Positions 13,991 through 64,000 of a stretch of 64,000 nucleotides of DNA are shown piece by piece (position 1 is the stretch's first letter; every line of letters starts with the position of its first letter). Source of the DNA: Blautia sp. Marseille-P3201T (GTDB taxonomy: Bacteria > Bacillota > Clostridia > Lachnospirales > Lachnospiraceae); the NCBI RefSeq assembly GCF_900120295.1, contig NZ_LT635469.1, forward strand, positions 496,001 to 560,000, given 5' to 3'. The position numbers were made by a program, and so were the translations under genes. Under the pieces are notes generated by a model that searched no databases, had not been told where the DNA came from, and saw only the letters and a list, made by a program, of their open reading frames with translations.

Positions 13991-14181
13991 TAAGATACCA
14001 AGGTCAGAAGGGTATAAACCATGTTGTGCTGGCACAAAAGTGGTTTTATTCCTTTCTGACCTGCCCCTAAATGAGAATAAAAGTGAGACGTAAGTCACAC
14101 GATATTCGAATTTGGGGCAGAATTGTGAGAGTGCGAAGCACGAAACAATTCGTCAGGTATCTTTTGACTTTAAGATACCAA
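13991..14181 (+). repeat. Four-hairpin element flanked by an 11-bp direct repeat
   Basis: The sequence TAAGATACCAA occurs at 13991-14001 and again at 14171-14181. Between them are four successive hairpins. The first pairs AGGTCAGAAG (from 14001) with CTTTCTGACCT (to 14062). The second pairs GCCCCTAAAT (14063-14072) with ATTTGGGGC (14110-14118). The third pairs GAATTGT (14120-14126) with ACAATTC (14145-14151), with GTGC/GCAC inside. The fourth pairs GGTATCTT (14156-14163) with AAGATACC (14172-14179). It fills the gap before the GPH symporter and may be its 5' leader, an operator array or an inserted small element. I do not recognise it as a known riboswitch. Confidence 0.7.
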
Positions 14182-21785: not shown

Positions 21786-21858
21786 GCGCGAGTGGCTCAG
21801 TTGGTGGAGCGCGACCTTGCCAAGGTCGAGGCCGCGGGTTCGAGTCCCGTCTCGCGCT
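21786..21858 (+). tRNA. tRNA-Gly (anticodon GCC)
   Basis: A full cloverleaf can be drawn. The acceptor stem pairs GCGCGAG (21786-21792) with CTCGCGC (21851-21857), followed by discriminator T. The D arm is GGCTCAGTTGGTGGAGC. The anticodon stem-loop GACCTTGCCAAGGTC carries GCC. The T arm is CGGGTTCGAGTCCCG. CCA is not encoded. It reads GGC and GGU glycine codons. Confidence 0.97.
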
Positions 21859-50775: not shown

Positions 50776-51068
50776 TTGACAAATAAAAGATATAGGATAT
50801 ATTATGTGGATAGAAAGAGAACACGTTGACGAGACGAGTAAAATGTGGAAGGTCACAGAGAGGAGTGTGTATGCTGAAAGCACTCTGTCACGGAAGCATT
50901 TGAAAACTACCTCTGAGTGGCCCCAATCCGGTCCGGTGATTCCGTTATCATCAAATGAAGTGGTTAGTAAAGCATTCGCTTTTAACAAAAAGGGTGGAAC
51001 CGCGGATAATTGTGAGAATAATCCGTCCCTTGCAGTCAGAAACAGGCAGCAGGGGACGGAGTTTTTTT
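50776..51068 (+). ncRNA. T-box leader controlling thrS, with promoter and terminator
   Basis: Promoter TTGACA (50776-50781) and TATATT (50798-50803) give a transcript from about 50810. The T-box consensus AGGGTGGAACCGCG is at 50991-51004. Upstream, stem I carries GACGAGTAAAATG (loop-E AGTA) and, on its 3' side, GAAAACTACC, where ACC at 50909-50911 is the probable threonine specifier. The terminator pairs TCCGTCCCT (51022-51030) with AGGGGACGGA (51051-51060), followed by seven Ts. Uncharged tRNA-Thr would stabilise the antiterminator and turn on thrS. Confidence 0.95.
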
Positions 51069-56419: not shown

Positions 56420-57276
56420 TGAAAACATACAAGGATGTTTTAGAGTATGGGAAAAAGAAACTTCTGGGATGTGAAATAGAAGATGCACAACTTGATGCAT
56501 GGCTTCTTTTAGAACATGTATCTGGGATATCCAGAAGCTGGTATTTTGTACATGAAAACGAAGAAATCAGTCAGGATTGTATAGAAAAATATCAAATACT
56601 GATTGAACAGCGGGGAAAACATATTCCTCTGCAGCAGCTTACAAAAGAAGCTTATTTCTACGGAATGAAGTTTTTTGTAAATGAAAATGTACTAATTCCC
56701 AGACAGGATACAGAAATTCTGGTAGAACAGGTTCTGAATTTATCAAAAGGAAAAGAAAATCTGAAGCTTCTGGATATGTGTACGGGAAGCGGCTGTATTT
56801 TATTAGCATTGTTGTCAAATTTAAAGCAGGCGTCAGGAACAGGGGTAGATTTGTCTGAAAAAGCTCTTGAGGTAGCACAGCGAAATGGCAGGGAACTGGG
56901 GATAGAAGTTTCCTGGATACAGAGCAATTTATTTGACAAAGTGTCTGGAAGTTATGATATAATCGTTTCAAATCCGCCGTATATTGAGACTTCTGTTATT
57001 GAAGGTCTGATGGATGAAGTAAAGTTGTATGAACCCCGCATGGCGCTGGATGGAACAGAAGATGGTCTGTTTTTTTACAGGAAAATTACAGCGCAGGCAG
57101 GAGAATATCTGAACAACAATGGGATATTGGCTTTTGAAATCGGTTACAATCAGGGAGAAGCAGTATCAGGATTTATGAAAGAGAATGGATACAAGGAAGT
57201 TCAGGTTTTGCAGGATTTGGCAGGACTTGACAGAGTAGTCACAGGAAGAATTAAGAAGGAGGAACAACATGTTTGA
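56419..57276 (+). CDS. prmC: Release factor glutamine methyltransferase PrmC
   Basis: SAM-dependent enzyme that N5-methylates the glutamine of the GGQ motif in release factors, in the cytosol. The product from ATG 56419 is 285 residues. The N-terminal helical domain binds the release factor ([13 protein letters not shown]). The catalytic part has [13 protein letters not shown] (about residues 94-106), the SAM loop [15 protein letters not shown] (about 116-130) and the signature VSNPPYI (about 183-189). The start overlaps the yqhQ stop (TGATG), and the end overlaps prfA by 8 bp, so modifier and target are made together. Confidence 0.96.
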
Positions 57277-58345
57277 TAAATTAGAGGACATCTTAGTCCG
57301 CCTTGAAGAAATTTTAAATGAGTTAAATGAGCCTACAGTGGCAAACGATACAACAAGATTTCAGAAGCTTATGAAAGAGCAGAGCGAGCTTCAGCCTATT
57401 GCAGATGCTTATACAGAGTATAAAAACTGCAAGGAAACCGTAGAGGACAGCTTGATGATGCTTGATGAAGAGTCTGATGAAGAAATGCGCGAAATGTTAA
57501 AAGAAGAGCTTTCTGATGCAAAAAAACGTATTGAAGAATTAGAACAGGAACTGAAAATTCTTCTTTTACCGAAAGACCCAAATGATGATAAAAACGTTAT
57601 CGTGGAAATTCGTGCAGGAGCAGGCGGTGATGAAGCAGCTTTGTTTGCAGCTGAGATTTACAGAATGTATGTAAAATATGCAGAGTCTCAGAACTGGAGA
57701 ACAGAGATGTTAAGCTTAAATGAAAACGGAATTGGCGGTTTCAAGGAAGTTACCTTTATGATTAACGGACAGGGCGCTTATTCCAAACTGAAATATGAAA
57801 GTGGTGTACATCGTGTACAGCGTGTGCCGGAAACAGAAAGCGGCGGACGTATTCATACTTCTACCATTACTGTTGCAATTATGCCGGAAGCAGAGGAAAT
57901 TGACTTTGAACTGGACTTAAATGACTGTAAGTTTGATGTTTTCAGGGCATCCGGAAATGGTGGTCAGTGTGTCAATACCACAGACTCCGCAGTGCGTCTG
58001 ACACATATTCCTACGGGAATTGTAATTTCCTGTCAGGATGAGAAATCACAGTTAAAGAATAAGGATAAAGCCTTAAAGGTACTGCGTTCCCGTTTGTATG
58101 ATATGGAGCTTCAGAAACGTCATGATGCAGAAGCAGAGGCAAGAAGAAGTCAGGTAGGGACAGGCGACCGTTCTGAAAAAATCAGAACTTATAACTTCCC
58201 GCAGGGACGTGTGACAGACCATAGAATTAAGCTGACACTTCATAAGCTGGACAGTATTATGAATGGAGATATTCAGGAGATTATTGATAACCTGATTGCG
58301 GCGGACCAGGCTATACGCTTAAGCGGCTTAGAAAAAGATGCCTAA
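57269..58345 (+). CDS. prfA: Peptide chain release factor 1
   Basis: Class I release factor for UAA and UAG, 358 residues. The anticodon-like tripeptide region lies in [15 protein letters not shown] (about 188-202). The GGQ motif, target of PrmC, is residues 231-233 in [11 protein letters not shown]-terminal coiled-coil helices (about 1-100) and the C-terminal [25 protein letters not shown] (core [13 protein letters not shown]) are complete. It overlaps prmC by 8 bp. A terminator follows 79 bp downstream, after which the accessory region begins. Confidence 0.98.
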
Positions 58346-58423
58346 AACTCCTAGTTTTACGCTGATAAGGAAGTATTCACAACAACTTATCACTAACGCT
58401 GACAGACAGGGTGCAAACAGAAA

Positions 58424-58467
58424 CAGAGGGCTAATCACTTTCAATGGTGGTCGGCTCTCTGTTTTTC
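58424..58467 (+). terminator. Terminator of the yqhQ-prmC-prfA operon
   Basis: CAGAGGGCTAATCAC (58424-58438) pairs with GGTGGTCGGCTCTCTG (58446-58461) with one mismatch and several wobbles, followed by TTTTTC. Confidence 0.85.
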
Positions 58468-58479
58468 TATCTTCACTTT

Positions 58480-58592
58480 GTTACGCAATAGAACGTCATT
58501 TTTGAGGGTAGGAAGTATAAAATATCGTCTAAGCGTTTTACACATTCTGCAAGCCGCATAAATCAAGCGTTTTTTACCCTCTACTGCGTAAC
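58480..58592. repeat. 113-bp imperfect palindrome, no gene
   Basis: GTTACGCA (58480-58487) pairs with TGCGTAAC (58585-58592), and GAGGGTA (58504-58510) with TACCCTC (58575-58581). Inside is a direct repeat of AAGCGTTTT (58531 and 58566). It marks the left edge of the mobile-element debris and might be an end of a lost element. No function is assigned. Confidence 0.55.
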
Positions 58593-58639
58593 ATATCTAT
58601 CCCCAAATCAGCAGTTTTATAAAGCGGGTGGATTAGACC

Positions 58640-58880
58640 GTTTTTGAATATTGCATAACTTCCGTTGTTGGATTATCCGATATTGGATTATCCGATACCA
58701 GGTTATCCGACATCGGAAAATCCAACGCAATTAAATAAAAATATAAATAACTAAAGAAATACCAAATACGGATTTAATCAAATACCCATTCCCTTCCTAT
58801 CCTTTCCCTAACCCCTTTCCTTTGGTCAAGACAAAGCGGCAGAGCCGCCGGAATGGAAAGGAATGGAACGGAAACGGCAA
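58640..58880 (+). pseudogene. Remnant of a mobile-element replication protein (RepA/DnaD-like tail)
   Basis: From 58668 one frame reads LDYPILDYPIPGYPTSENPTQLNKN before a stop, then other stops follow (58759, 58807). Such YP-rich tails followed by SENPTQ-LN and then a basic, Pro-rich stretch are familiar from replication initiators of Firmicutes conjugative elements (from memory). At DNA level it is a 15-bp unit, TTGGATTATCCGATA, present exactly at 58668-58682 and 58683-58697 and degenerate at 58698-58712. No start codon or domain remains. Confidence 0.4.
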
Positions 58881-59065
58881 TATAAAAATATCGTTTGTTA
58901 GTCAAAACGGAATTGCAGGATAGCTTTGATAAGCTGTGCTTTCAAACGGCCTTGAATATCGTCGTTAATATGCCCACGATAGGTAGACAGATATTTAATC
59001 TGCGCTGTGTAATGCAGAATTTCGACAACAGCATGAAACAAAATAAATGTGAAAGGGGGAAGAAG

Positions 59066-59188
59066 ATGCAAGTTGTTATCGAGATATCCAAAGAAGTATT
59101 GTACGATACAAAGCAAACGATAGAACAAGCAACAGACTTTGCAAAAAGTGTAACTGCATTAGGATTTTATAAGCAATATGGGGTATAG
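59066..59188 (+). pseudogene. Truncated UPF0175-like small protein
   Basis: A 40-residue frame from ATG 59066, with the strong site AAAGGGGG at 59053-59059 (approximately). It reads MQVVIEISKEVLYDTKQTIE, then ATDFAKSVTALGFYKQYGV and a stop. UPF0175-type proteins of mobile elements (often antitoxin-like) continue at this point with a SIGYCAEIAGM-type helix-turn-helix, which is absent here, so the gene is cut by the stop at 59186-59188. The open frame upstream (to 58895) has no recognisable content. Family assignment is from memory and moderate. Confidence 0.45.
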
Positions 59189-59261
59189 AAAAAATCTAAA
59201 ATGCTGACAGATACATAAAAAATGAGGGATGCACATAGAATAAAACAGGTATGATTTGTCC

Positions 59262-59290
59262 TTGACAAAGGAGTTTGTTGAGGATATACT
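59262..59290 (+). promoter_or_regulatory. Near-consensus promoter of the Abi ncRNA/abi unit
   Basis: TTGACA (59262-59267), exactly 17 bp, TATACT (59285-59290). Transcription should start near 59297, giving a structured RNA before the abi start codon. It is as strong by sequence as any promoter in the window. Confidence 0.85.
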
Positions 59291-59296
59291 GTACCT

Positions 59297-59368
59297 AGTG
59301 ATCGCACTACGGAAACTTGAGAAGCCCGTAGTCCGGAAGGCTCCTGCGGGGGCCTTTCGTTATTTTCA
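59297..59368 (+). ncRNA. Structured ncRNA upstream of abi (abiF-RNA-like)
   Basis: Hairpin 1 pairs ACTACGG (59306-59312) with CCGTAGT (59326-59332) around a 13-nt purine-rich loop. Hairpin 2 pairs AAGGCTCC (59337-59344) with GGGGCCTT (59349-59356) and ends in TCGTTATTTT, resembling an intrinsic terminator. The CGCA at 59303-59306 could pair with the TGCG loop (59345-59348) as a pseudoknot. It lies directly before an Abi_2 gene and has its own promoter, which is the arrangement of the abiF RNA motif described from comparative genomics. I assign it by context and shape; the covariance model was not run. Confidence 0.7.
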
Positions 59369-59392
59369 GGGAAGTACAAAGGCGGCGGGAAA

Positions 59393-60334
59393 ATGAAGAA
59401 AAAAGGATTTTTAACATATGATGAGCAGATTGCCTTTTTAAAAGAGGAAAAGAATCTGGAAATACAGGATGAAGAATATGCTAAAAAGATATTGTTTAAA
59501 ACAGGATATTTCCCGTTGATCAATGGATATAAAGAGGCATATAAGAATCCAGTAACGAACCAATTTCAAGATGGTATTACTTTTGAAGATATTTATGAAC
59601 TGTATCAATTTGACAATGATTTGCGAAGTATTTTCATAAAGTATATTTTAATGGTGGAGAGGAATATCAAGTCTTCCTTATCGTATCATTTTTGCCTTAC
59701 ATATGGTGATATGCAGGATGATTATCTGGACATTAACCATTATGATTATTCAGGCAAGAAAAAGATAGTGATTCAAAATATGTTGAAAATCATGAAAGGC
59801 CAGCTTAGAAACGATAGTGACTATGTGTACATCCGTCATTATATGAAAAAATATAAGTATGTACCATTGTGGGTGCTGTTTAATGTATTAACAATTGGAC
59901 AGTTATCGAAAATATATAGCTGCCAGAAAGGCCGGGTACAGATACAGGTTTGTCAGGATTTTGGACCGATTAAGATCAATGAGATGATCAAAATGTTAGC
60001 AGTTATGACAAAGTTCAGAAATGTGTGTGCTCATAATGATCGTCTGTTTGACTTTCGTACCAAGGATGCTTTATGTGATATGAAAATTCATGAAAGACTT
60101 TCCCTACCAAGAGAGTATGGACGATATGTGTATGGAAAAAATGACTTGTTCGCACAGTTGATTATCTTGAAACTTTTATTGCCGGAAGACGAGTTTAAAA
60201 CGCTTTTCCATGAATTAAAAGTGTGCTTCCGAAAACATCCAGTACATAAAGAAGTCTTGGGGAAAATGGGATTTCCAACGAAATGGGAGAAAATCGGAAG
60301 AATAAAAAAATTTACGAAAACAGAGTTAAAATAA
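59393..60334 (+). CDS. Abi_2 (AbiD/AbiF-type) abortive-infection HEPN protein
   Basis: A 313-residue cytosolic protein of the Abi_2 family, phage-defence proteins with a HEPN-type nuclease fold. Typical elements are KGFLTYDEQIAFL at the N-terminus, ILFKTGYFPLINGY (about residues 33-46), FEDIYELYQFDNDLRSIF (core about 64-80), the MVERNIKSSLSYHF helix (about 87-100) and YVPLWVLFNVLTIGQLSK (about 156-173). The HEPN motif R-x4-H is R209-NVCA-H214 in KFRNVCAHNDR. It is intact, with promoter and structured RNA upstream and a terminator downstream. RNase activity restrained by the RNA is the likely mechanism (inference from the AbiF family). Confidence 0.9.
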   Translation: MKKKGFLTYDEQIAFLKEEKNLEIQDEEYAKKILFKTGYFPLINGYKEAYKNPVTNQFQDGITFEDIYELYQFDNDLRSIFIKYILMVERNIKSSLSYHFCLTYGDMQDDYLDINHYDYSGKKKIVIQNMLKIMKGQLRNDSDYVYIRHYMKKYKYVPLWVLFNVLTIGQLSKIYSCQKGRVQIQVCQDFGPIKINEMIKMLAVMTKFRNVCAHNDRLFDFRTKDALCDMKIHERLSLPREYGRYVYGKNDLFAQLIILKLLLPEDEFKTLFHELKVCFRKHPVHKEVLGKMGFPTKWEKIGRIKKFTKTELK

Positions 60335-60372
60335 TAAAGAAGATATGAACATCAGGCAGGATATGTTCCCAT

Positions 60373-60398
60373 AAAAAGGCAGGTATCCTGCCTTTTTT
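60373..60398 (+). terminator. Terminator after the abi gene
   Basis: A perfect 11-bp stem (AAAAAGGCAGG 60373-60383 with CCTGCCTTTTT 60387-60397) has a 3-nt loop and a T-run that forms part of the stem. It closes the abi unit at 60398, just before the metK fragment. Confidence 0.9.
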
Positions 60399-60420
60399 GC
60401 ATGAAAGAGAGGAAATTCAT

Positions 60421-60750
60421 ATGAGAAAATTTTATACAGCAGAAGCAGTAACAGAAGGACATCCGGACAAATTGTGCGACCAGATCGCAGATACAATCTT
60501 GGATGTGTGTCTGAAGAATGATGAAAATTCCAGAGTAGCCTGCGAGGTACTTGCTACAAAAGGGAATATCATTGTGGCAGGAGAAATCACCAGTACCTAT
60601 GAACCGGATGTGTTTGGGGTGGTAAGAAAAGTATTGTCCGAGGTGGGAGTTTCCAGTAAGGAAATTCATATGGATACCTTTGTCCATCAGCAGAGTCCGG
60701 ATATTGCAGAGGCAGAGGAAAATTCCAAAGAGAAACGAGAAGGCTTGTGA
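60421..60750 (+). pseudogene. metK: 5' fragment of S-adenosylmethionine synthetase gene
   Basis: From ATG 60421 (AGAGGAA upstream) the frame gives MRKFYTAEAVTEGHPDKLCD, then QIADTILDVCLKN and so on to HQQSPDIAEAEENSKEKREG, and stops at 60748-60750. This is the N-terminal quarter of MetK (109 residues of about 390), with the EGHPDK motif. The substrate loop, central and C-terminal domains are missing, so it cannot be active. The next bases belong to a different gene (FtsX-like), so the junction near 60740 is a recombination scar. A complete metK must exist elsewhere if the cell uses it. Confidence 0.85.
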
Positions 60751-61589
60751 AGGATTTAAAAGCCATTGACGGTGTAACAGAAGTGAAAATCGGGAAGCAA
60801 TTATATGCTTATGACGAAAAGGGAGAACTTCATTCTATTGCTGTTTTAGACCGTAAGCTTTTTGAAAAAGAAAGGAAAGGATCAGGCGTATTAGGGACAG
60901 TAGATTATGACAGAGCATCAAAAAACAATGCAATTTTTCATGGTTGGTCACACTTTATTGCAGATACCGGATATGAAATCGGAGATACTGTTTCCTTTCA
61001 GTTAGGAGGAAAGCAGGGAGAAATTTCTTATCAAGGAGAATTGCAGGGAGCTTTCGGTTCAATAAACGGTGATTGGGGAATTACAGAAGATACTTATAAA
61101 AATCTTGGATTTGCTGATGCAGAGGAAAACATCGGAACAATCTGGGTAGATTGCAAGAAATCAGAGCGTAAAAATGTAGAAGCCGCCATAAAAGAGCTTT
61201 TGGAAAACAAAGACCATTATGAATTAAGTAGCTTTGAAGGGGAAGTGGAGTCTCTCGACTCAATGATGGCAATAATGAAAACCATGGGTTACAGCTTCCT
61301 GCTGTTAATCGGAATGATTACTTTTATGAATATGGCAAACACCATGATTTTAAATGTCATTACAAGAAAGAGAGAGTTGGGTGTGCTGCAGGCAGTGGGA
61401 ATTCCGGCAGGATACGGACTTTTCCTGTATGGTAAGAAAGCAGGATTAACAGGATTTGATGTTTATCACTTCCCTAGTGTGGAAATTTTAGTAATGATTT
61501 TCATTTTGGCAGTTCTTCAGATTGGCTTGTCCTTTATGCTCAGCAGAAATGTGAAAAAGGAGTCACTGATTGACAGAATTCGATATTAA
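60747..61589 (+). pseudogene. 3' fragment of an FtsX-like ABC permease, with internal deletion
   Basis: An open frame of 280 codons from GTG 60747, but clearly the tail of a much longer MacB/FtsX-type permease (usually 700-850 residues). KDLKAIDGVTEVKIGKQLYAYD and GVLGTVDYDRASKNNA are extracytoplasmic domain. MNMANTMILNVITRKRELGVLQAVG begins the last membrane block. Then QAVG is joined directly to IPAGYGLFLYGKK; about 30 residues expected here, including part of a helix, are missing in frame (estimate from relatives). The end SRNVKKESLIDRIRY is normal. It overlaps the convergent AraC gene by 27 bp. Confidence 0.8.
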
Positions 61590-62477
61590 GTTACTCTGGA
61601 ATTTTGCAGAAGTACGGAAGTCAGAAGGTGTACAATGTTTATAGTGCTTAAATTGACGTACAAAATAACTGATGTTTTCGTATCCATTATTGAGTGCAAC
61701 TTCCGTAATAGGTGCAGTAGTTTTTAGAAGCTGAGCAGCAGCTTGATTAATACGATATTCATTTAAGTAGGCAAATGGTGTTTTGCCTACTTTTTCTTTG
61801 AAAAATTTGCAGAAATAATTTTTATTCAGAGGAATACATTCTGCAAGAGCTTCCAGTGTTACAGGCTCCATATAATGCTTTTCTATATAGGAAAACACAG
61901 ATTTTAAAGAATGATTTTCAAAATCTTTTTCAGCTTCATGCTTTTGGGCAGAAGAAAAGGCGTGTTCCTGAAATAGAATTTCCAATATCTGCAAGAGTAT
62001 AATTTTTATGGAAAGTGCAGTATTGGCAGAGGTGTCTTCTAAATAGAGTCTGGCTGCCTTTGATATCAAAGAACCAATTTGCAGGCTGATTTCCAAAGAG
62101 AGAGAACTTCCTTCAGGAAACAGCAGTTTTTTTGACAGTAAAGGAGTAAGAAGCTCATTTTGACAAATATCATATTGAGAAAAACTTAAAAAGGACATGG
62201 GAAATAAAAGAGCATAATGGTGGGAAACTTCACTATGACCGAAAATTCCATGAACCATACCGGGATTGATAAAATATACATTTCCCTCTGTTAAAAGCTG
62301 AGAGTTGGTTTCTGTGCGAAGCATCAGGCTTCCTTTGGTGATATATATAAATTCTGTTTCTTCATGCCAGTGGTAAGGGGCGAAGTATTGTCCGCAAAAA
62401 TCTTCCTGAGACAGAGCCTGGAAAGGAAAGTAAGGTGTTCCGTGTGGATTTTCTTCCTGAATGTTAATTTTATACAT
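61563..62477 (-). CDS. AraC-family transcriptional regulator (cupin sensor)
   Basis: Regulator of 304 residues. The N-terminal cupin-like sugar-sensing domain (about 1-120) has YHWHEETEFIYITKGSLML (about 35-53) and VYFINPGMVHGIFG. The C-terminal AraC/XylS double helix-turn-helix (about 195-295) has LEALAECIPLNKNYFCKFFKEKVGKTPFAYLNEYRINQAA (core NYFCKFFKEKVGKTP) and ISYFVRQFKHYKHCTPSDFR. ATG 62477 has AGGGCG upstream on the minus strand; the open frame up to 62543 lacks a site. It is divergent from the oligo-1,6-glucosidase gene, which it probably controls in response to an alpha-glucoside (inference). Confidence 0.92.
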   Translation of the reverse strand: MYKINIQEENPHGTPYFPFQALSQEDFCGQYFAPYHWHEETEFIYITKGSLMLRTETNSQLLTEGNVYFINPGMVHGIFGHSEVSHHYALLFPMSFLSFSQYDICQNELLTPLLSKKLLFPEGSSLSLEISLQIGSLISKAARLYLEDTSANTALSIKIILLQILEILFQEHAFSSAQKHEAEKDFENHSLKSVFSYIEKHYMEPVTLEALAECIPLNKNYFCKFFKEKVGKTPFAYLNEYRINQAAAQLLKTTAPITEVALNNGYENISYFVRQFKHYKHCTPSDFRTSAKFQSNLISNSVNQ

Positions 62478-62520
62478 AATAATTTCGCCCTTTCTTGTAA
62501 TTACATAAATAAAAGTGAAT

Positions 62521-62550
62521 ATAGTACAAATAAAGAGTAACATATTGCAA
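62521..62550 (-). promoter_or_regulatory. Putative araC promoter
   Basis: On the minus strand TTGCAA (62545-62550) and TACTAT (62521-62526) are 18 bp apart. The divergent gene has a TATACT (62572-62577) but no good -35, as expected for an activator-dependent promoter. Confidence 0.5.
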
Positions 62551-62611
62551 GAATTTAAGAAAGAGTTTTTTTATACTGAAAGTAACGAAAAAGAACTGTG
62601 AGGTACATACT

Positions 62612-64000
62612 ATGAATAAAACATGGTGGAAAAATAGTGTAATTTATCAAATTTATCCAAGGAGTTTTGCAGATAGCAATGGAGACGGAATTGGAGATAT
62701 TAAGGGAATTACTCAACATCTCGATTATTTAAAGGAACTGGGCGTAGATGTTATCTGGCTGTCTCCTGTTTATCAGTCTCCTAATGATGATAATGGATAT
62801 GATATTTCCGATTATCAGGCAATTATGGAAGATTTTGGAACAATGGAAGATTTTGATGAAATGCTTTCAGAGATGCATAAAAGAGGAATAAAGCTGGTTA
62901 TGGATTTGGTAGTGAACCATACTTCTGATGAACATCCGTGGTTTGTAGAAAGCAGAAAGTCAAAAGATAATCCTTATCGTGATTACTACATCTGGAAAGA
63001 AGGAAAAGATGGGAAAGAGCCAAATAACTGGGGAGCATGTTTTGGCGGTTCTGCATGGGAATATGATAAGGAAACAGAAATGTACTATTTACATTGCTTT
63101 TCTAAGAAACAGCCTGATTTAAACTGGGAAAATGAAAAAGTCAGAAAAGAAGTTTTTGATATGATGACATGGTGGTGTGAGAAAGGTGTAGATGGATTTC
63201 GTATGGACGTTATCAGCATGATTTCTAAAGATCCTGCCTATCCTGACGGAGTTTCTCATAATGGCTTATATGGTGATTTTGGCCCTTTTGTCTGCAATGG
63301 TCCTCATGTTCATGAGTATTTACAGGAAATGAACCAAAAAGTGCTTTCTAAGTATGATTTGATTACGGTTGGTGAAGCGTCTGGCGTTACTGTAGAAGAA
63401 GCAAAAAAATATGCTAATTTAGACGGAACTGAGCTAAACATGGTATTCCAGTTTGAACATACAGACATTACATCTGGAAAGAATGGAAAATGGACAGACG
63501 AGAGATTTAAACTCAGAGATTTGAGAAAAATATTGAATAAATGGCAGACAGAGTTGGAGGGAAAAGCATGGAACAGTCTTTATTGGGATAACCACGACCA
63601 GCCAAGAGCTGTGTCTCGCTTTGGAAATGACGGACCAATGTATCGTGAACTTTCAGCTAAAATGCTGGCAACCTGTCTTCATTTGATGAAGGGAACACCT
63701 TATATTTATCAGGGTGAAGAAATTGGTATGACAAATGCTTATTTTAACAAACTGGAAGATTATCGTGACATTGAAAGTATTCATGCTTTTGAAGAGCTGA
63801 CAGAAAATGGTCTTCTTACAGAGGAAGAAATGATGAGCGCTTTAAAGGCAATCAGCCGTGATAATGCCAGAACTCCTATGCAGTGGGACGATAGTGAAAA
63901 TGCAGGATTTACCACAGGCACACCATGGATTAAAGTAAATCCTAATTATTTACAGATTAATGCAAAGGCGGCTTTGGAAGATAAAGACAGCGTGTTCTAT
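62612..64000 (+). CDS. GH13 oligo-1,6-glucosidase (3' truncated by window edge)
   Basis: Alpha-glucosidase of the GH13 oligo-1,6-glucosidase subfamily; 463 codons are visible of about 550. The start MNKTWWKNSVIYQIYPRSF and the calcium-loop DSNGDGIGDIKGI are typical. The catalytic nucleophile is D199 in GFRMDV, the acid/base E255 in VGEASG, and the third acid D329 in WDNHDQPR. These are the same numbers as in Bacillus cereus oligo-1,6-glucosidase. Residue 200 is Val, which in this family goes with alpha-1,6 (isomaltose-type) preference. No signal peptide, so it acts inside the cell. It is divergent from an AraC regulator. Confidence 0.95.
   Translation, partial: MNKTWWKNSVIYQIYPRSFADSNGDGIGDIKGITQHLDYLKELGVDVIWLSPVYQSPNDDNGYDISDYQAIMEDFGTMEDFDEMLSEMHKRGIKLVMDLVVNHTSDEHPWFVESRKSKDNPYRDYYIWKEGKDGKEPNNWGACFGGSAWEYDKETEMYYLHCFSKKQPDLNWENEKVRKEVFDMMTWWCEKGVDGFRMDVISMISKDPAYPDGVSHNGLYGDFGPFVCNGPHVHEYLQEMNQKVLSKYDLITVGEASGVTVEEAKKYANLDGTELNMVFQFEHTDITSGKNGKWTDERFKLRDLRKILNKWQTELEGKAWNSLYWDNHDQPRAVSRFGNDGPMYRELSAKMLATCLHLMKGTPYIYQGEEIGMTNAYFNKLEDYRDIESIHAFEELTENGLLTEEEMMSALKAISRDNARTPMQWDDSENAGFTTGTPWIKVNPNYLQINAKAALEDKDSVFY

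What the first reader, a model, noticed from the sequence alone, without database searches (positions are those of the whole stretch)
59262..60398. Intact AbiF-type HEPN gene with its own promoter and a structured, terminator-ended RNA
Seen: consensus-like promoter (TTGACA-17-TATACT), a two-hairpin RNA of about 70 nt ending in an intrinsic-terminator-like stem, then an Abi_2 protein with R209-x4-H214, then a clean terminator. The unit is complete although everything around it is broken, which suggests it is maintained. Known: abiF-associated RNAs were found by comparative genomics, and HEPN-ncRNA pairs of this type have been proposed as relatives of the ancestor of Cas13 (from memory). Inference: an RNA-antitoxin/HEPN-toxin defence module in a gut Lachnospiraceae.
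Basis: partly seen in the sequence, partly recalled or inferred. Interest (0 to 1): 0.85.

Follow-up and report, generated by a model that had tools for sequence, protein, structure and literature searches.

The report
AbiF toxin, RNA antitoxin, phage copies
A gut bacterium carries a self-poisoning anti-virus gene that is probably controlled by a small folded RNA of a kind missing from the public RNA catalogue, and similar RNAs, without the poison gene, turn up in virus genomes, often right beside their transfer-RNA genes, which suggests that viruses use them as an antidote.

Summary
Confirmed: an intact AbiF/AbiD (Abi_2, HEPN) gene follows a promoter and a two-hairpin RNA. But the RNA is real: in 36 AbiF-linked copies the first stem is paired in every sequence, with compensatory changes in 5 of 7 pairs. 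It is a separate class ('R1') tied to one AbiF branch. Promoter, RNA, gene and terminator align to two relatives as one unit with different flanks. Best reading: a type III-like toxin-antitoxin module, as others showed for C. difficile AbiF/RCd22 and PbAbiF.

Beyond the finding: the RNA also occurs without the toxin. Of 25 viral loci with R1, 18 have no Abi_2 in their record; 8 of these 18 lie within 20 nt of a tRNA gene (0 of the 7 with AbiF; 0 of 60 bacterial loci even within 300 nt). The canonical abiF RNA behaves alike: 8 of 8 named phages opened and 80 of 80 viral records lack Abi_2, and 20 of 80 loci have a tRNA within 20 nt (random positions 1.2%). I infer phage-borne RNA mimics of the antitoxin. 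No experiment was done; toxin control here and phage function are inference.

The parts
59199..60394 (+). whole cassette: the only stretch of 57000-64000 that aligns to the two nearest relatives
   Evidence: blastn: 88% identity to L036 (59199-60243) and L037 (59211-60394), no flank aligned
59262..59290 (+). promoter TTGACA-17-TATACT
   Evidence: promoter-like pair before the RNA in 34 of 36 loci, window included
59296..59367 (+). RNA of class R1 (72 model positions, 85.8 bits; the window is one of the 36 rows of the model)
59306..59312 (+). P1 stem, 5' side (pairs with 59326-59332)
   Evidence: 100% of cells paired in 36 sequences, 5 of 7 pairs with compensatory changes
59313..59325 (+). 13-nt P1 loop with several invariant bases, likely the protein-recognised part (inference)
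   Evidence: the rows were found with a loop motif
59326..59332 (+). P1 stem, 3' side
59334..59359 (+). P2 stem-loop, terminator-like
   Evidence: 89.9% of cells paired
59393..60334 (+). abiF/abiD gene, 313 aa, Abi_2 family
60017..60034 (+). HEPN motif R209-NVCA-H214
   Evidence: R209, N210, H214 invariant in 53 sequences
60373..60398 (+). terminator-like hairpin after the gene
   Evidence: seen in the sequence; not listed by the scan

Best explanation
A type III-like toxin-antitoxin cassette. One promoter makes the R1 RNA; most transcripts stop at its second hairpin (P2), and a few read through to make AbiF, a dimeric HEPN RNase. The R1 RNA binds AbiF through the P1 loop and keeps it silent. 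Phage infection or stress upsets the balance, AbiF cuts cellular RNA, and growth stops. Phages answer by carrying the antitoxin RNA without the toxin, often placed against a tRNA gene so that it can be made and trimmed with the tRNA. Shown here: gene, conserved RNA structure, pairing of RNA class with one protein branch, the cassette in different surroundings, toxin-less viral copies and their place beside tRNAs. Shown by others for relatives: toxicity, R/H dependence, RNA binding and neutralisation. Inferred: read-through control here, defence, and the phage antidote role.
For: Protein; AlphaFold2 pLDDT 95.4 and 8VZ6 'PbAbiF dimer bound to ncRNA' as the only PDB match at E <= 0.001. RNA: P1 100% paired, 5 of 7 pairs compensatory, 0 of 500 shuffles reach the covariation score; promoter-like pair in 34 of 36. 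R1-type AbiF needs one change on the tree, 34 rows, support 82/90. R. torques ATCC 27756 keeps the RNA (84.7 bits) while its abiF aligns only in separated pieces, as expected if the RNA is the harmless half. Viral copies; controls. C. difficile precedent: PMC12373285.
Against: No experiment on this gene or RNA. The promoter-like pair and terminator are of common kinds. Two of the five covariation measures are not beyond shuffles (pairs with a change on both sides 14 against mean 12.0, reached by 51 of 500; further pair types reached by 41 of 500), the whole structure counted. R1 and RF03085 do not match each other, so transfer of the C. difficile and PbAbiF RNA results is by analogy. Many bacterial R1 RNAs have lost AbiF (48 of 69 entries opened had no long AbiF frame, 10 of them weak hits, 12 with AbiF remnants), so RNA without toxin can also be mere decay. 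Hosts are unknown for the metagenome contigs, and viral records may be fragments.
Confidence: 0.8

Rival explanations
1. The RNA is only a cis-acting leader: a transcription attenuator of abiF that senses some signal, and it does not neutralise the protein in trans.
For: P2 looks like a terminator between promoter and gene; folding changes when the downstream 26 nt are added; a riboswitch-like role in cis is described for RCd22.
Against: Invariant bases lie mostly in the P1 loop and leader rather than in P2 (though the rows were found with a loop motif). Copies occur with no abiF in the record in viruses. RCd22 acts in trans and binds AbiFCd (PMC12373285).
Confidence: 0.12
2. The viral copies are relics or hitch-hikers of lost AbiF modules and have no function.
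For: Bacterial loci show many toxin-less R1 RNAs, 12 of 48 with AbiF remnants; some viral copies sit where prophages may carry cargo (L160, L193, L173/L174; my reading of the ORFs). In the stand-alone copies two of five covariation measures are not beyond shuffles (82 and 19 of 500).
Against: P1 is paired in all 105 cells of 15 stand-alone copies, with compensatory changes in 3 of 7 pairs (alignment fitted to the model). Canonical copies pair at two free column pairs in 37 of 37 and 36 of 37 distinct sequences. Placement 4-6 nt before varied tRNA genes recurs. None of 60 bacterial R1 loci has a tRNA within 300 nt, nor any of the 7 viral loci with AbiF a tRNA in the locus.
Confidence: 0.2
3. 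The RNA guides AbiF to targets, as a crRNA guides Cas13.
For: AbiF is proposed as the ancestor of Cas13 (a review; PMC12165695).
Against: No variable guide-like segment: loop bases are conserved and the stem varies in ways that keep pairing. The review describes the AbiF RNA as an antitoxin.
Confidence: 0.03

Closest known systems
AbiFCd / RCd22 of C. difficile prophage phi027 (PMC12373285; abstract, outline, passages, sections 7 and 11, and part 1 of 2 of section 13 seen)
   Same: SigA-type promoter, small RNA with terminator, then an Abi_2 HEPN gene with R-x4-H; the short RNA is the main transcript
   Different: RCd22 is 88-132 nt with two RF03085 motifs; here one R1-class element of about 70 nt and no RF03085 match
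PbAbiF-AbiFr, PDB 8VZ6 (Zilberzwige-Tal et al. not read; known through)
   Same: Same fold (TM 0.77/0.81); PbAbiF R210/H215 align with R209/H214 (with the residue numbers given)
   Different: About 20% identity; the RNA of that structure was not compared here
Rfam abiF RNA RF03085
   Same: Small hairpin RNA next to Abi_2 genes; also stand-alone in phages beside tRNAs
   Different: No cross-match: RF03085 on 17 R1 loci, R1 on 8 phage loci with RF03085
Phage PhiTE pseudo-ToxI (PMC3475682; outline and abstract seen)
   Same: Phage RNA that copies a type III antitoxin RNA and rescues the phage
   Different: ToxI/ToxN system; escape came by repeat expansion or recombination; the abstract names no tRNA cluster
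RNA anti-CRISPRs, Racr (PMC10651486; passages seen)
   Same: Solitary viral copies of an RNA that a host defence complex binds
   Different: Copies CRISPR repeats, not an antitoxin
abiF sRNA noted in cyanophage S-CREM1 (PMC9964418; passages and section 3.5 seen)
   Same: The same phage RNA as analysed here
   Different: The parts seen list it as a small RNA, with no antidote role and no mention of the tRNA genes beside it

Membership tests
Abi_2 / AbiD-AbiF protein family | Match to PF07751 above the curated cut-off | tested here: met
   162.3 bits, cut-off 25.6; PADLOC AbiD E 3.5e-64
Abi_2 / AbiD-AbiF protein family | HEPN R-x4-H motif intact | tested here: met
   R209, N210, H214 invariant in 53 sequences
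Abi_2 / AbiD-AbiF protein family | AbiF fold | tested here: met
   Model pLDDT 95.4; 8VZ6 E 1.6e-10
Rfam abiF RNA (RF03085) | Covariance-model match | tested here: not met
   No match at E <= 10, none in the genome, none in 17 R1-type loci at E <= 1. The model does match 5 of 20 sister AbiF loci at E <= 1, one over its cut-off
Type III toxin-antitoxin system | RNA gene directly before the toxin gene, shared promoter | tested here: met
   (sequence level only; transcription not tested)
Type III toxin-antitoxin system | RNA binds and neutralises the toxin protein | not testable with these tools
   shown for RCd22-AbiFCd in PMC12373285
Type III toxin-antitoxin system | Tandem repeats in the RNA, as in ToxI (recalled) | tested here: not met
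   One R1 element in the window; a tandem pair occurs in G084:C44. So I say 'type III-like'
Phage defence (abortive infection) system | Reduces phage yield or plaques | not testable with these tools
   -

The most novel reading that the evidence does not exclude
Phages of many kinds carry stand-alone AbiF antitoxin RNAs of at least two classes that do not match each other (R1 and RF03085) as RNA antidotes, and often build them into tRNA clusters, typically 4-6 nt before a tRNA, so that tRNA processing by RNase P releases the antidote together with spare tRNAs. This would be a widespread RNA-based counter-defence against the kin of Cas13's ancestor.
Probability: 0.55. Interest if true: 0.92.

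Novelty: new variant of a known kind. Interest (0 to 1): 0.8.

Why it matters
AbiF is held to be the ancestor of Cas13, and its RNA the forerunner of crRNA. A second RNA class tied to one AbiF branch suggests that the RNA partner was replaced or reinvented, which bears on how a guide RNA could arise. The toxin-less copies in named phages (for example S-CREM1, S-SZBM1, T7-Ah) make it directly testable whether phages fight AbiF with RNA mimics, and give a further possible reason for tRNA clusters in phages.

Tried and rejected
Rfam abiF as the family of the RNA: rejected. Rfam hit STnc540 (31.6 bits, under its cut-off 38): it covers the hairpin after the gene, not the RNA; rejected. Loss of the terminator T run in tRNA-cluster copies as a sign of altered function: counted and dropped (bacterial median 6 T in 10 nt, five phage copies 4-6). 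Orphan R1 RNAs as control elements of other toxin-antitoxin genes: some lie before such genes, but relics are common, so I do not claim it. Of 51 viral loci brought by the R1 patterns (one search added none), 26 had no R1 match of 33 bits or more and were dropped; by rough arithmetic of mine (note) a short pattern of that kind can hit about that often by chance, so only R1-scored loci count. Identity of neighbour proteins between the two tRNA-cluster phages as a yardstick: 76%, 36% and 83% by a crude global alignment, not relied on. Host naming of the tRNA-cluster phages: only distant matches to a terminase-like protein, 25 Bacillus phage records and one Microcystis phage. Weinberg et al. 2017 not held; Zilberzwige-Tal et al. 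2025 not looked up, so I cannot exclude that its RNA models (named) cover the R1 class or phage copies.

Full report
CHECK OF THE OBSERVATION. A TTGACA-17-TATACT pair lies at 59262-59290, a two-hairpin RNA at 59296-59367, and an uninterrupted 313-aa gene at 59393-60334 that matches Abi_2 with 162.3 bits and PADLOC AbiD with E 3.5e-64. R209, N210 and H214 of the R-x4-H motif are invariant in an alignment of 53 sequences. The RNA folds better than most shuffles (z -2.70), though less so when the next 26 nt are included (z -1.64). Taken alone, the promoter is weak evidence, since the region has fewer promoter-like sites than its shuffles.

THE NAMED TEST FAILS, BUT THE RNA IS REAL. No Rfam family reaches its cut-off at the RNA, and abiF (RF03085) does not appear at E 10 in 59000-60600 or in the 2.94-Mb genome (150 of 757 first-look candidates scored). 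That is not a dead search: the model matched 5 of 20 other AbiF loci at E <= 1, one over its cut-off, and none of 17 window-type loci. I then took DNA before AbiF relatives, mostly from 299 genomes of the same family (67 have a match at E <= 1e-10). Of 71 distinct upstream stretches listed (one further locus, L003/L043, was dropped because my script found no start), 36 carry the same RNA, found with a loop-and-leader motif. In all 36 the 7-bp first stem is fully paired, 5 of 7 pairs have compensatory changes, and none of 500 shuffles reached the covariation score; two of the five measures were reached by 51 and 41 of 500 shuffles. Loop conservation is partly built in by the motif; stem pairing was not asked for. 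A promoter-like pair precedes 34 of 36. The covariance model built from them is called R1.

ONE RNA CLASS, ONE PROTEIN BRANCH. On a tree of 64 AbiF proteins the 34 with R1 RNA form one side of a branch (support 82/90), needing one change where shuffled labels need 21.5 on average. One of the 34 (L030) has its R1 RNA after the gene, not before. My label for the canonical class in that tree was a loose text pattern, so only the R1 group should be read from it. By eye, at least three other kinds of RNA-like element precede AbiF genes of other branches in the same host family; of nine such loci the eight scanned gave no Rfam match there.

A CASSETTE IN DIFFERENT SURROUNDINGS. Of 57000-64000 only 59199-60394 aligns to the two nearest relatives (88% identity), which were fetched with 4 kb on either side. 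R. torques ATCC 27756 keeps the RNA (84.7 bits) while its abiF aligns only in pieces, with extra DNA right after the RNA and an internal stretch missing. The home genome has five Abi_2 genes and six R1 matches: one match has no AbiF behind it, one is weak and degenerate, and one Abi_2 gene showed no R1 match in its locus (L005, L044).

STRUCTURE. The AlphaFold2 model is confident (pLDDT 95.4, pTM 0.91). The only PDB match at E <= 0.001 is 8VZ6, 'PbAbiF dimer bound to ncRNA' (TM 0.77/0.81).

RNA WITHOUT TOXIN IN BACTERIA. A scan of the 299 genomes found R1 in 65 at E <= 0.001. In a spread of 398 genomes of the phylum, the matches outside the family were all under 36 bits. Of 69 R1 entries opened with their flanks (weak ones and repeats included), 48 had no long AbiF frame behind the RNA; 10 of those 48 are weak hits, 12 carry AbiF remnants (among them L088 and L105 with long but split or cut pieces), and two contigs end within 300 nt after the RNA. 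Toxin loss with the RNA left behind is therefore common.

RNA WITHOUT TOXIN IN PHAGES. Pattern scans of IMG/VR gave 51 loci; a further pattern added none. R1 scores 33 bits or more in 25 of them (14, 11). Seven carry AbiF (five, two). In the records of the other 18 no Abi_2 was found at E <= 0.01, including records of 170 kb and 163.5 kb; records may be fragments. Eight of the 18 lie within 20 nt of a tRNA gene: L189, L192, L194, L195, L198, L200, L161, L177 (L173 and L174 checked). By flank similarity these are 4 of 12 clusters. In L189, L192, L194, L195 and L198 the RNA fills the gap between tRNA-Met and tRNA-Arg. A terminase-like gene lies nearby in L194 (Pfam match under its cut-off). Controls: none of the 7 viral loci with AbiF has a tRNA in the locus, and none of 60 bacterial R1 loci has one within 300 nt (9 of the 69 entries, eight weak hits and a repeat, were left out). 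In 15 stand-alone copies (three near-copies left out) all 105 P1 cells pair and 3 of 7 pairs show compensatory changes; two of five measures were reached by 82 and 19 of 500 shuffles, and the alignment was fitted to the model. L161 and L177 score lowest of the eight (37.5 and 33 bits).

THE CANONICAL abiF RNA BEHAVES ALIKE. The S-CREM1 paper lists an abiF small RNA (PMC9964418, passages and section 3.5). In the record it lies between tRNA-Asn and tRNA-Gly. A search with it listed 15 records of 10 phages, of which I opened 8 phages. All 8 pass the Rfam cut-off (44.4-55.7 bits, cut-off 37) and 0 of 8 whole genomes has Abi_2. None of these 80 records has Abi_2 at E <= 0.01. Twenty of 80 loci have a tRNA within 20 nt, against 190 of 16,000 random positions in the same loci; in 18 of the 20 a tRNA starts 4-6 nt after the RNA. 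The 80 form 38 flank clusters, 9 of which show tRNA adjacency, with different tRNAs. In 391 bacterial genomes of the window's class a slightly relaxed form of the pattern occurs once, directly before an AbiF gene. The first two column pairs not fixed by the pattern pair in 37 of 37 and 36 of 37 distinct sequences; with a less regular third, 101 of 111 cells pair, 44 when slid by one.

HOW IT MOST LIKELY WORKS. By homology to AbiFCd/RCd22, where the RNA binds the toxin, works in trans, and R202/H207 are needed for toxicity (PMC12373285), the window cassette is a toxin with an RNA antitoxin. The phage copies keep the conserved part of the RNA, lack the toxin, and often sit where small RNAs are made and trimmed. 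The simplest reading is an antidote that neutralises host AbiF. Precedents in kind are PhiTE pseudo-ToxI (PMC3475682, abstract) and RNA anti-CRISPRs (PMC10651486, passages). Phage tRNAs as a counter to tRNA-cutting defences are also described (PMC10264068, search listing only; PMC13096335, abstract). Relic status and an unknown other role are not excluded.

NOVELTY. The cassette is a new variant of a known kind. I saw no paper on the R1 class or on stand-alone AbiF RNAs as phage antidotes in the listings of searches. The library lacks most subscription journals, and I have not read Zilberzwige-Tal et al. or Weinberg et al.

Noticed in passing
G000:C10:1026994-1027065 (L123): Degenerate R1-like RNA (29 bits) directly before a MazF/PemK-type gene in the window's own genome.
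   Followed up: partly
L109 and L133: R1 RNA without AbiF, followed in two genomes by the same small ORF and a Zeta-toxin-like kinase (Pfam run on the L109 copy only).
   Followed up: partly
L124, L173, L174: R1 RNA without AbiF before a 72-aa Phd/YefM-like ORF, beside what look like phage tail genes (my reading). Pfam match under its cut-off, run on L124 only.
   Followed up: partly
L131, L134: R1 RNA without AbiF before a nucleotidyltransferase plus substrate-binding pair (L131) and a DUF3990 gene (L134).
   Followed up: no
L050, L051, L070; L054, L055; L067, L069, L072, L075: Three further kinds of RNA-like element before AbiF genes of other branches, unlike R1 by eye; the eight scanned (all but L067) gave no Rfam match there.
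   Followed up: no
L077:1928-1964: A second RF03085 RNA lies downstream of an AbiF gene.
   Followed up: no
G084:C44:247-386: Two R1 RNAs in tandem before an AbiF gene, recalling the double motif of RCd22.
   Followed up: no
upstream of R1 promoters in L008, L011, L013, L039, L049: A recurring GCATATACT about 20-25 nt before the -35 box, a possible regulator site (by eye).
   Followed up: no
window 13993-14162, 50817-51033, 21786-21858: Clostridiales-1 RNA, a T-box leader and a tRNA.
   Followed up: no
window 60421-60750 and 60747-61589: Truncated S-AdoMet synthetase N-terminus followed by a weak FtsX-like fragment: a decayed stretch after the cassette.
   Followed up: no
L206, L209, L210: In three T7-like Aeromonas phages the abiF RNA sits between the connector and scaffold genes, just after a T7-type promoter-like string (promoter recognised from memory).
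   Followed up: no
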